64,000 nt of DNA from positions 4,588,001 through 4,652,000 of the forward strand of contig NZ_CP147913.1 in assembly GCF_037414475.1 (NCBI RefSeq), written 5' to 3'. Each line of letters begins with the position of its first letter. Position 1 is the first letter of the stretch. Shown in pieces: positions 50,572 to 53,202 of the stretch. Both the position numbers and the translations under genes were made by a program. The stretch is from Myxococcus stipitatus (GTDB lineage: Bacteria; Myxococcota; Myxococcia; Myxococcales; Myxococcaceae). Under the pieces are notes generated by a model. It had not been told where the DNA came from. It saw nothing but the letters and a program-made list of their open reading frames with translations, and did not search any database.

Positions 50572-50625
50572 ACGCGGAAAACTGGGCTAGAGTTCGGGCC
50601 ACGTTCACTCTTCGTGGAGCGCCAC

Positions 50626-51090
50626 ATGTCTCAGGAAAACGCTGAAGGAAAGCCGAAGCAGGGTCTCTCGCGGCCCATCGAGGTCGTTCGCGCAGAGCTC
50701 CTGGCCGACGAGGAGACCAAGAAGATTGCCACGGCCGTCAACATGAAGCTCGAGGACTACGTGGAGCTGGTCCTCAAGTACGCCCAGGACAAGAGCCTGG
50801 AGCCCGAGCTGGCCATCGTCTCCGACGACGAGCTGCGCAAGAACGGCATCACGCCGGTGACGACCGACGAGGCCGCCGACCTCATCATCCGCGGGATGAA
50901 GGGCGAGCTGCCCGGGTCGGCTCCGGACTTCGACGCCTCCAAGTTCGAGCAGAAGGCGACGGGCGGAAAGCCCTCCCTGTCTTCGCCGACGCAAGAGACG
51001 GCGGCTCCCGCGAAGTCCCAGCCCCAGGACGATGCGTCGCGTCAGTCGATGCTGGACCAGATCAAGCGCGGCGGTGGCGGCAGGGTCTGA
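50626..51090 (+). CDS. conserved soluble protein of unknown function
   Basis: A 154-residue acidic protein without signal peptide. The N-terminal part is helical (RPIEVVRAELLADEETKKIATAVNMKLEDYVELVLKYAQ, residues 15-55), with a DDELRKNGITPVTTDEAADLIIRGM segment next and a Ser/Pro/Gln-rich disordered tail ending QIKRGGGGRV. Codon bias and a GGAG-preceded ATG support a real, well-expressed gene. I recognise no domain. It stands in front of the equally unknown 152-residue gene, with 149 bases between. Confidence 0.65.
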   Translation: MSQENAEGKPKQGLSRPIEVVRAELLADEETKKIATAVNMKLEDYVELVLKYAQDKSLEPELAIVSDDELRKNGITPVTTDEAADLIIRGMKGELPGSAPDFDASKFEQKATGGKPSLSSPTQETAAPAKSQPQDDASRQSMLDQIKRGGGGRV

Positions 51091-51127
51091 GCGTCTGGCC
51101 TGGGGGGCGGGAACCCGGGGATTAAAT

Positions 51128-51159
51128 CGACGGAAATTCCGCGAGAAACAATTCCGTCG
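51128..51159 (+). promoter_or_regulatory. inverted repeat in the leader of the 51240 gene
   Basis: CGACGGAA (51128-51135) and TTCCGTCG (51152-51159), perfect 8-bp arms separated by 16 bases in an A/T-rich segment. No U-tract follows. It could be a regulator binding site, since the spacing equals about one and a half helical turns, or the terminator of the gene upstream. Confidence 0.4.
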
Positions 51160-51239
51160 GTCTGCCGAGAATCACTTCGAGTCTCTTCTTCGCCCAAATT
51201 CCCCCGCCTTCCTCCACTCTTCCTTCTCAAGGTGCCGCT

Positions 51240-51698
51240 ATGCTCTCGTTCCTCAAGAACAACCCGCTTACCAACCTGATCAAGAAGCCGCTGGAGATCG
51301 TCGGCAAGGCCGCCGAGGCGGTCAGCAAGGTTGCCGGTGGCATCGCGAACATCGGCCAGAAGGCGCTGAGCTTCCTGAACAAGCCGGCCAGCGAGGCCAT
51401 CGCGCCGATCACCAACAAGATCAGCGAGCAGGTCAAGAAGATCCCCTTCCTGGGCAAGTTCCTGGCCCCGGTGGTCGAGGGTCTGATGAAGCAGGGCGCG
51501 ACGGCGCTGCTCGGCTCGGGCCCCATCGGCGGCATCGGCGCGATGGCGCAGATCACCTCCAAGGTGTCCGACCTGACCAACCTGGCGCAGGGTGTTCGCA
51601 CGGCGGCTGACAAGGTCGGCGCCTTCGCCAACAACCCGCTGGGCCAGATGAACCTCCAGAACATCATGGCGCACCAGCACGCGGCGCTCATCCGCTAG
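51240..51698 (+). CDS. amphipathic helical protein of unknown function
   Basis: A 152-residue protein with no signal peptide. It consists of short amphipathic helices rich in Lys, Ala, Val and Gly, separated by Asn/Pro turns: FLKNNPLTNLIKKPLEIVGKAAEAVSKVAGGIANIG (quoted in parts), ISEQVKKIPFLGKFLAPVVEGLMKQGATALLG, then GPIGGIGAMAQITSKVSD and a C-terminal NPLGQMNLQNIMAHQH. Codons are dominated by the optimal set (AAG, ATC, CTG), as in very highly expressed genes, and the following DNA carries three terminators in tandem. It resembles membrane-interacting or storage/matrix proteins, but no family is recognised. Confidence 0.65.
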   Translation: MLSFLKNNPLTNLIKKPLEIVGKAAEAVSKVAGGIANIGQKALSFLNKPASEAIAPITNKISEQVKKIPFLGKFLAPVVEGLMKQGATALLGSGPIGGIGAMAQITSKVSDLTNLAQGVRTAADKVGAFANNPLGQMNLQNIMAHQHAALIR

Positions 51699-51734
51699 TT
51701 CCTCGCGCCCCAGGGCGCGGCGGTACGGCGAGTC

Positions 51735-52030
51735 CGAAGGCCGGCTTCCCACGAGAGTGGGGCCGGCCTTTTGGCGTTTCTGGGCCCGGCGGAGGGGGCC
51801 GATGCACCGTAAGTGCGGCGAGGCGCGAAGGCCGGCTTCCCACGAGAGTGGGGCTGGCCTTTTGGCGTTTCTGGGGCCGGGCGGAGGGGGCGATGCGCCG
51901 TAAGTGCGGCGAGGCGCGAAGGCCGGCTTCCCACGAGTGTGGGGCTGGCCTTTTGGCGTTTCTGGGGCTGGGCGGAGGGGGGCGATGCGCCGTAAGTGCG
52001 GCGAGGCGCGAAGGCCAGCTTCCCGCGCGG
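51735..52030 (+). repeat. three tandem 91-bp repeats, each with a Rho-independent terminator
   Basis: Units begin at 51735, 51826 and 51917 (period 91), and a decayed fourth begins at 52009. Each has a long hairpin then TTTT: 51737-51772, 51828-51863 and 51919-51954. The stem is AAGGCCGGC paired with GCCGGCCTT in unit 1; units 2 and 3 have one G-U pair. Inside it CCCAC pairs with GTGGG around a GAGA or GAGT tetraloop. The rest of the unit (TTTGGCGTTTCTGGGG to CGTAAGTGCGGCGAGG) is also conserved. They follow the gene ending at 51698 by 39 bases. Confidence 0.9.
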
Positions 52031-52542
52031 AGGTCGGCCAGCTGGCTCTGCAGATGGTGAGCCTGCGCGAAGGCACCGCGAGGGTGTTGCCCGAGCAGGG
52101 TAGGCGGTGCTGTCCCTTCGGTGCTTCTGGGGCGGCACCGGTCTCGCGGCTGGTGGAGTCGAGTGTCAGCACCGTGAGGGTGCGGCGGAACCCGAAGGTC
52201 GATCTGCCGCGAGTGTGGGCCCTGCCGTTGGGGGCGGGCATCCAACTGCGAGGGAGTGGCGGGCTTTGTGCGGCCGAACCCTTGGGGCTTCTCACTCCCA
52301 CCGTGAGGTTTGTGATCCACTGATGGGGATTGTGAAGGTGCTTCCAGTGAAGCACCCCGGGAGCGCGGCACGCCGCCTCGGGTCGGCGGTTTCAGCATCG
52401 CGAGAGCCCCCGGTTCTCCCGGTGCCTGAGCGAGAGACTGCGCGGATCATGCCGGTGATTGTCGTGCCGTGTGAGGGCATCGGCGGATCACCCGGATGCG
52501 CAAGGGGAGAGTCCAGGCCCCTCGTGAGAGAGGCGGCTCTCT
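52031..52542. other. intergenic region without recognisable gene
   Basis: About 510 bases. Base composition stays high in GC but third-position bias is weak in every frame. Part of it may be further decayed copies of the 91-bp unit (the fourth copy fades at about 52030). Several short open frames exist on both strands, none with a good ribosome-binding site or motif. Nothing can be assigned. Confidence 0.4.
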
Positions 52543-53202
52543 TCAACCCTCTTCGCGAACGAGCCGCTTCACATCCCCCAGGAGGCGATCCGTCGAGTCG
52601 CTGTCGGCGCTGTCGTAGTAGCCGCGAATCTGTCCCTTGGAGTCCACGAGGACGAAGTGGGTCCCGTGGAAGATGGAGAGCAGGTCATTCTCATCGGCGC
52701 CGGCCTCGCGCCCCATGCTGACCTTGAAGCCCTGGACGATGGTGTCCTTGAGGATGTCGTAGTCCCCAGTGAGGAAGCTCCAGCGGGTGAAGTTGGCGCC
52801 GTGGAGTTGCCCGTACTCCGCGAGCCGCTCGGGCGTGTCGTACTTCGGGTCGACGGAGAAGGACACGAGCCGGAGGCCGGTGCCGTGCGAGTCGGTGCTC
52901 TGCTGCACGTGCGCCATCTTCCGGGTGAAGGCCGGGCAGACGGTGGGGCAACGGGTGAAGATGAAGTTGGCGATGAAGGGATGCCCGCGAAGCTGAGCGC
53001 TGCCGAAGGGCTGGCCATCCTGCCGGGTGAAGGAGAAGTCCGGGAGCGCGCCGAGCTGGGGCAGGGGCTCGCTGTTCGTGCGCAGGAGGGAGAACCCAGC
53101 CGCCGCGGAGATGCCCAGCGCGATGACGGCGATGCCGGCCCAGAAGCCGGGGCGTTGCGTGAGGCGAGCGGGGGGGAGCGCGACGGAGGACTCAGCGGAC
53201 AT
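52543..53202 (-). CDS. SCO1/SenC family copper-chaperone protein
   Basis: A 219-residue membrane-anchored thioredoxin-fold protein. One TM helix (PGFWAGIAVIALGISAAAGF) is at the N-terminus and the rest is periplasmic. FSFTRQDGQPFGSAQLRGHPFIANFIFTRCPTVCPAF (quoted in parts) contains the CPTVC copper/redox motif, and the distal His is in FHGTHFVLVDSKG, giving the full CxxxC...H copper site. SCO proteins deliver copper to the CuA centre of cytochrome c oxidase subunit II. No cytochrome oxidase genes are adjacent in the window. Start ATG is followed at once by a polar cytoplasmic stretch, as usual. Confidence 0.9.
   Translation of the reverse strand: MSAESSVALPPARLTQRPGFWAGIAVIALGISAAAGFSLLRTNSEPLPQLGALPDFSFTRQDGQPFGSAQLRGHPFIANFIFTRCPTVCPAFTRKMAHVQQSTDSHGTGLRLVSFSVDPKYDTPERLAEYGQLHGANFTRWSFLTGDYDILKDTIVQGFKVSMGREAGADENDLLSIFHGTHFVLVDSKGQIRGYYDSADSDSTDRLLGDVKRLVREEG

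What the first reader, a model, noticed from the sequence alone, without database searches (positions are those of the whole stretch)
51735..52030. Three tandem terminators in 91-bp repeats behind a highly optimised small gene
Each unit has a long hairpin with a T-run, and the variation among copies keeps the stem (G-C or G-U) and the tetraloop form. Triple termination would protect the downstream region from a very strong promoter, or the units could be processed into identical small RNAs. Either use is unusual.
Basis: partly seen in the sequence, partly recalled or inferred. Interest (0 to 1): 0.6.

Follow-up and report, generated by a model that had tools for sequence, protein, structure and literature searches.

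The report
Gene-end hairpin copied in tandem
A conserved transcription stop-type hairpin behind a strongly codon-adapted small gene has been copied head to tail in some related bacteria, ours holding three good copies, and the extra copies look like mostly redundant spares rather than a needed triple brake.

Summary
In detail: three 91-bp units (51735-52007), each with a 15-pair hairpin (-25 to -28 kcal/mol) and a split U-tail, plus decayed sequence behind. The gene in front (51240-51698) has a codon adaptation above 257 of 257 sampled genes. The genome has 10.3 Mb and 26 held congeners.

Comparison changes the meaning. The gene, the convergent SCO1 gene and the FIRST hairpin with its tail are conserved in 27 of 27 congeners. 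Only 11 of 27 have extra copies (2-7 in all), with lineage-specific periods, spacers and copies, decaying away from the gene. Sixteen relatives manage with one hairpin at the same codon adaptation. Stem changes are mostly of the kind that keeps G-U pairing in the + strand RNA. No close copy was found elsewhere in the genome.

Best reading: an ordinary terminator of this genus, expanded locally by tandem duplication; spares may still terminate, but need for triple termination is not shown. No 3'-end data were available. In passing I found a more striking object elsewhere in the genome: tandem 71-nt RNA-like units behind a sigma-54-like promoter.

The parts
50614..51090 (+). upstream partner gene (158 aa, start uncertain; no Pfam or NCBIfam family)
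   Evidence: ORF; found beside the small gene in 26 of 27 congener loci, not seen in L020, whose locus begins at its contig end; no family hits
51145..51173 (+). promoter-like block GAAAC-N17-GAGAATC, spacing invariant in the genus
   Evidence: pattern found in 27 of 27 congener loci, not in the 3 distant loci L029-L031; promoter function is inference
51240..51698 (+). 152-aa gene of unknown function, predicted helical with low confidence, very high codon adaptation
   Evidence: no Pfam or NCBIfam family
51704..51719 (+). short GC palindrome CGCGCCCC-AGGGCGCG just after the stop
   Evidence: read; a similar short palindrome is visible after the stop in relatives printed (not counted)
51735..51825 (+). 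unit 1: the conserved terminator-type hairpin with split U-tail, plus spacer
   Evidence: hairpin model 72.5 bits at 51734-51784; orthologous hairpin in 27 of 27
51826..51916 (+). unit 2: tandem copy of the hairpin
   Evidence: 69.8 bits
51917..52007 (+). unit 3: tandem copy of the hairpin
   Evidence: 68.1 bits
52008..52232 (+). degenerate repeat sequence, possibly decayed further copies
   Evidence: partial matches of 66-79%; model scores of 14.0 and 14.1 bits are at background level
52543..53202 (-). convergent SCO1/SenC gene
   Evidence: Pfam SCO1-SenC E 1.7e-28; convergent in 27 of 27 congener loci

Best explanation
Unit 1 is the ordinary intrinsic-type terminator (or at least the 3'-end hairpin) of the 152-aa gene: a GC-rich stem of 14-15 pairs followed by a split U-tail (UUCGGCUUU or UUUUGGCGUUU), kept throughout the genus. 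In two clades this hairpin with some flank was duplicated head to tail, by slippage or unequal recombination, repeatedly and differently in each lineage. New copies keep their fold for a time, probably still terminate what leaks past the first, and decay with distance from the gene; array length between 1 and 7 has no visible link to the gene's codon adaptation. Shown: conservation, copy numbers, lineage-specificity, decay, a pairing pattern that fits + strand RNA. Inferred: that the hairpin terminates transcription in the cell, the duplication mechanism, and that the spares are redundant.
For: First hairpin plus tail in 27 of 27 congeners at the same place, tail bases GGC.TT invariant; gene in 27 of 27, convergent SCO1 in 27 of 27. 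Hairpin model: copies of at least 45 bits number 3,2,4,4,5,2,2,2,7,3,2 in 11 loci and 1 in the other 16; nine multi-copy loci form one clade and two lie in another on a FastTree tree whose supports I did not print. Extra copies resemble those of their own genome (nearest extra copy in the same genome for 18 of 20; 2000 label shuffles mean 2.5, max 9); periods 56-97 bp. Scores fall with distance from the gene in 73 of 87 within-locus pairs, shuffle mean 43; the first copy is best in 10 of 11 loci. 95.4% of cells paired against 38-63% when partners are slid. On the 27 first copies, all 10 single C/T changes in the stem keep a pair and no single G-to-A occurs; among extra copies 16 single C-to-T against 2 G-to-A, p 0.0013. 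Weaker model hits elsewhere in the genome have other stems; 8 of 13 lie within 70 nt after a same-strand ORF stop.
Against: No transcript data. The U-tail is split and fails a simple scan, so termination efficiency is uncertain. The extra copies analysed were chosen by resemblance to the hairpin, which favours intact pairing and inflates; 14 of 46 single stem changes break a pair, and unpaired columns also show some excess of C-to-T over G-to-A (14 to 9). In one search two of five measures are not above the shuffles (pairs with double change 5 v 3.6; further pair types 17 v 15.7). With first copies included only 16 of 24 extra units have their nearest relative in the same genome. One search uses a model built partly from the first copies. 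The genome-wide model search scored 150 of 15,043 first-look candidates. Copies in L006 and L010 (5 and 7 good ones) are kept better than pure decay would suggest.
Confidence: 0.68

Rival explanations
1. Selected multiple termination: extra units were kept because one leaky split-U terminator is not enough behind this very active gene, shielding the convergent SCO1 gene from antisense read-through.
For: Very high codon adaptation; convergent SCO1 in 27 of 27; extra units largely keep RNA pairing; multi-copy state in two clades.
Against: 16 of 27 relatives have one unit with equal codon adaptation (means 0.860 and 0.861, Mann-Whitney p 0.86), 11 of these 16 with SCO1 only about 123-154 bp away (the other 5 have gaps of 435-848 bp); copies decay distally.
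Confidence: 0.18
2. The units are processed into identical small RNAs with a function of their own.
For: Same-genome precedent of tandem RNA-like units elsewhere; stable hairpins.
Against: Only the hairpin and tail are conserved; in 9 pairs of relatives the 60 nt after the first hairpin match at 0.51-0.81 identity, shuffled spacers giving near 0.5; no Rfam match; 16 of 27 relatives have no extra unit.
Confidence: 0.07
3. A DNA-level palindromic repeat (REP-like element, protein site or slippage hot spot) with no role in RNA.
For: Gap length varies greatly, and two relatives (L013, L016) carry quite different tandem repeats in the same gap.
Against: Pairing asymmetry favours G-U in + strand RNA; no other close copy found in the genome; fixed place just after the stop in 27 of 27.
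Confidence: 0.07

Closest known systems
Tandem terminators (e.g. rrnB T1-T2 of E. coli, recalled; the galM tandem of a Rho-independent and a Rho-dependent terminator, PMC9927376, passages seen)
   Same: Two or more terminators in a row behind one transcription unit, the later ones catching read-through.
   Different: Here the units are head-to-tail duplicates of one another, near-identical in this genome, with copy number from 1 to 7 between congeners; termination not measured.
Tandem pxr small-RNA paralogs of Cystobacter (PMC5568312, passages seen)
   Same: Tandem duplicated structured RNA units in a myxobacterial intergenic region.
   Different: pxr copies are sRNA genes, each with its own sigma-54 promoter, between nla19 and an NADH dehydrogenase gene; the window units lie between a small gene and SCO1, and only the hairpin and tail are conserved.
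REP/BIME-type intergenic palindromes (recalled)
   Same: Palindromic repeats at 3' ends, sometimes clustered.
   Different: No other close copy was found in the genome.

Membership tests
Intrinsic (Rho-independent) terminator | stable GC-rich stem-loop at the 3' end of a gene on the sense strand | tested here: met
   -25 to -28 kcal/mol, z -3.4 to -4.6; about 37 nt after the stop; hairpin in 27 of 27 relatives
Intrinsic (Rho-independent) terminator | run of U immediately after the stem | tested here: inconclusive
   split U-tail UUUU-GGCG-UUU; not called by the 5-of-8 scan; tail conserved in 27 of 27
Intrinsic (Rho-independent) terminator | RNA 3' ends form at the tail | not testable with these tools
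   needs Term-seq or 3' RACE
Tandem terminators | two or more terminators in succession on the same strand behind one gene | tested here: inconclusive
   three hairpins at 91-bp spacing are there as structures; that they terminate was not tested
Dispersed repeat family (REP-like) | many similar copies across the genome | tested here: not met
   one place by DNA search (40 of 51 first-look candidates scored); model search gives 3 hits of 68-72 bits, all in the array, next best 34.6 bits (150 of 15,043 first-look candidates scored)
Tandem small-RNA genes (pxr-like) | unit conserved as a whole with its own promoter | tested here: not met
   spacers not conserved in 9 species pairs; no sigma-54-like TGGCAY-N4-6-TTGCW match in any of 27 gaps; no sigma-70-like site; other promoter types not tested
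Rfam families | match at gathering score | tested here: not met
   0 matches in the window, 0 up to E 1 over 51000-52600

The most novel reading that the evidence does not exclude
Terminator strength at this locus evolves by copy number: a fixed, conserved but leaky split-U terminator is repeatedly amplified in tandem, in at least two clades and with independent units in each lineage, and the copies are kept for a time by selection on read-through, making an evolvable 'terminator ladder' behind one of the most codon-adapted genes sampled in the genome.
Probability: 0.2. Interest if true: 0.55.

Novelty: new variant of a known kind. Interest (0 to 1): 0.33.

Why it matters
Terminators are usually thought to change strength by point changes in stem or U-tract (general knowledge). 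A locus where the same terminator-type hairpin is repeatedly multiplied, with 1 to 7 copies across close relatives and the neighbouring genes held constant, is a natural series for asking whether terminator redundancy is selected or merely tolerated. It also shows a conserved split U-tail hairpin in a high-GC bacterium that a simple scan missed.

Tried and rejected
Dispersed repeat: no other close copy found. Known RNA family: none. Relatives in other genera by protein: in the species collection 69 stretches matched a pattern and none encoded a relative; of 61 genomes searched, 28 match: 27 of 27 of the genus and one weak match in another family. Function of the 152-aa protein: no Pfam or NCBIfam family above threshold; fold models were poor (pLDDT 62.8 single; 42.4 with alignment) and were not searched further. 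Simple hairpin counts are no evidence in this GC-rich genome: 60 in 464 kb (window included) against 48 in shuffles; only the tandem arrangement stands out there (2 pairs against 0, both in this array). A second 800-kb sample, without shuffles, gave 119 hairpins and 3 tandem pairs, one of them the second array described below and two unlike it; the last 800 kb were searched for tandem repeats only. Link between copy number and codon adaptation: none. Regulon of the promoter-like block: the exact pattern GRAAAC-N17-GAGAATC found nothing in the own genome, because the own copy reads AGAAAC, so that search was uninformative. Literature: ten searches, of which I saw listings only; none listed a paper that by title or abstract start describes this array or terminator arrays in Myxococcus; some listings were cut (12 of 2,042; 15 of 59; 25 of 29). 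Passages seen: PMC9927376, PMC7566282, PMC5568312, PMC5684412; PMC12207403 holds none of my four terms. WebGeSTer paper not held. Rows dropped: distant loci L029-L031 before all counts of 27 (14 of 27 genomes have such a second, distant match, 12 of them not fetched); L008's second copy is missing from A2 (24 of 25 extra copies of at least 45 bits used); five opposite-strand matches were left out; 22 of 27 proteins went into A3.

Full report
What is there. The window lies in a 10.31-Mb single-contig genome with 26 held congeners. The genus is not named by any search; size and relatives suggest Myxococcus (recalled). At 51735-52007 three 91-bp units stand head to tail, each with a 15-pair hairpin of -25 to -28 kcal/mol and z of -3.4 to -4.6. 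The loops read GAGA, GAGA, GAGT. The tail is TTTTGGCGTTTCT: two short U-runs split by GGCG, the first of which partly pairs with the stem-base A's. The simple scan did not call it. On the minus strand the hairpin has no T-rich tail (read), so it faces the upstream gene only. Degenerate repeat sequence follows, but further hairpins there score at background level.

The gene in front. The 152-aa ORF 51240-51698 has no Pfam or NCBIfam family and no confident fold. Its codon adaptation against 24 ORFs of the ribosomal-protein cluster of the same genome is 0.858, above 257 of 257 sampled genes and above 22 of the 24 reference ORFs. That is a sequence proxy for expression, not a measurement. A 158-aa gene precedes it and a SCO1/SenC gene converges from 53202 to 52543. 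SCO1 converges in 27 of 27 congener loci and the upstream gene is seen in 26, the 27th being cut near its contig end. A promoter-like GAAAC-N17-GAGAATC block is found upstream in 27 of 27.

Conservation of the first hairpin. Aligning the first hairpin of all 27 shows the stem and tail held, with two pairs changed on both sides. Placed on a tree, stem columns change 0.64 times each against 1.84 for the other columns; single changes in the stem are 6 C-to-T and 4 T-to-C, all keeping a pair, 2 transversions that break one, and no single G-to-A; two further transversions, changed on both sides, break a pair and two double changes keep it. A C-to-T turns G-C into G-U, which pairs in the + strand RNA but not on the opposite strand (A-C), so the asymmetry suggests that the + strand RNA hairpin is what is kept.

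Extra copies. A covariance model of 32 units finds copies of at least 45 bits as follows: own genome 3; L003 2; L004 4; L005 4; L006 5; L007 2; L008 2; L009 2; L010 7; L011 3; L014 2; the other 16 loci 1 each. On a FastTree tree of the three neighbouring proteins, rooted at the midpoint, nine multi-copy loci form one clade and two lie in another, beside single-copy L013. The gap between the small gene's stop and SCO1 ranges from 123 to 1115 bp (the SCO1 edge is that of a tblastn match). Periods are 56-97 bp. Extra copies are most like other extra copies of the same genome: 18 of 20 against a shuffled mean of 2.5 and maximum of 9; if first copies are allowed as neighbours, 16 of 24. In 9 pairs of relatives the first hairpin core is 0.92-1.00 identical while the next 60 nt are 0.51-0.81. 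Score falls with distance from the gene in 73 of 87 within-locus comparisons. This is birth by tandem duplication and decay, with the first copy constant.

Are the spares used? For: their pairing is largely kept (95.4% of cells), and single stem changes relative to the genome's own first copy are 16 C-to-T against 2 G-to-A, p 0.0013. Against: the copies were picked by resemblance, which biases both; 14 of 46 single stem changes break a pair and unpaired columns also lean to C-to-T (14 to 9); two of five measures do not exceed shuffles; scores fall off in distal copies; and codon adaptation, computed with this genome's weights, is the same with one copy (mean 0.860, n 16) or several (0.861, n 11; p 0.86). 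I therefore think that they are mostly redundant spares with residual function.

How unusual is it? In the own genome only the three units match the model strongly; the next best is 34.6 bits (150 of 15,043 first-look candidates were scored). Of the 13 weaker hits, 8 lie within 70 nt after a same-strand ORF stop (mechanical ORFs); 5 of 13 carry TTGCGGG in the tail, though the model includes the tail and so selects for it. This hints that the hairpin style is more general here. In 2.06 Mb (100 sampled stretches plus the window) Tandem Repeats Finder gives 32 arrays with period 40-160 and score of at least 150; 13 lie outside coding-like frames, and of these only two have a unit hairpin below -25 kcal/mol: this one and one at G000:C1:1603532-1603742; three arrays in coding-like frames reach that energy too.

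The second array, in passing. Downstream of a 138-aa lipoprotein-like ORF and convergent with an epimerase-like ORF (names are mine, from the sequence) lie three 71-bp units. On the minus strand each folds into two hairpins with a U-rich tail. The own gap and those of 25 of 26 congeners (the 26th, L159, gave no readable gap) have 2-4 units 70-71 bp apart (14 with two, 11 with three, 1 with four), and all 26 have a sigma-54-like TGGCAY-N5-TTGCT 119-126 nt before the first loop. Fifty-three distinct units show 9 of 22 pairs with changes on both sides (shuffles 5.3), 98.9% of cells paired and 63 double-change cells against 15.7; further pair types (18 v 16.5) do not exceed shuffles. Rfam gives nothing near threshold. 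It is not pxr by its neighbours: pxr lies between nla19 and an NADH dehydrogenase gene and is single-copy in most species (PMC5568312, passages seen). Searches listed no paper on it. It looks like an undescribed tandem small-RNA locus, and it shows by contrast what an RNA-gene array looks like: whole unit and promoter conserved. The window's array is the opposite.

Verdict. Real, confirmed and mildly unusual: a conserved gene-end hairpin multiplied locally. The triple-termination need and the small-RNA reading are not supported. Interest 0.33.

Noticed in passing
L072:3530-3745 minus strand (G000:C1:1603530-1603745, outside the window): Candidate undescribed tandem small-RNA locus: 2-4 units of about 71 nt, each two hairpins plus U-rich tail, behind a sigma-54-like promoter, in 26 of 26 readable gaps of the genus (own included); strong covariation (9 of 22 pairs with double changes); no Rfam family; neighbours differ from those of pxr.
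   Followed up: partly
window 51145-51173: Promoter-like GAAAC-N17-GAGAATC block with invariant spacing upstream of the 152-aa gene in 27 of 27 congeners; could be an alternative-sigma promoter.
   Followed up: partly
L013 and L016, gap behind the orthologous small gene: The same gap holds quite different tandem repeats (about 51-bp units with GGAATGAGGGTTCCTTCC in L013; longer units in L016), so the gap seems prone to tandem duplication (read).
   Followed up: no
L030:1501-1921 and L031:1501-1921 with upstream neighbours: Distant paralogous pair (about 32% and 42% identical) of the small gene and its upstream partner in two congeners, with a weak match of the hairpin model just after the stop (19.8 and 20.3 bits); 14 of 27 genomes have such a second match to the small gene.
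   Followed up: no
G000 loci L035-L047: Several hairpins after other ORFs share a split U-tail (TTGCGGG in 5 of 13 weak model hits, a set selected by the model), possibly a terminator style of this genus that simple scans miss.
   Followed up: partly
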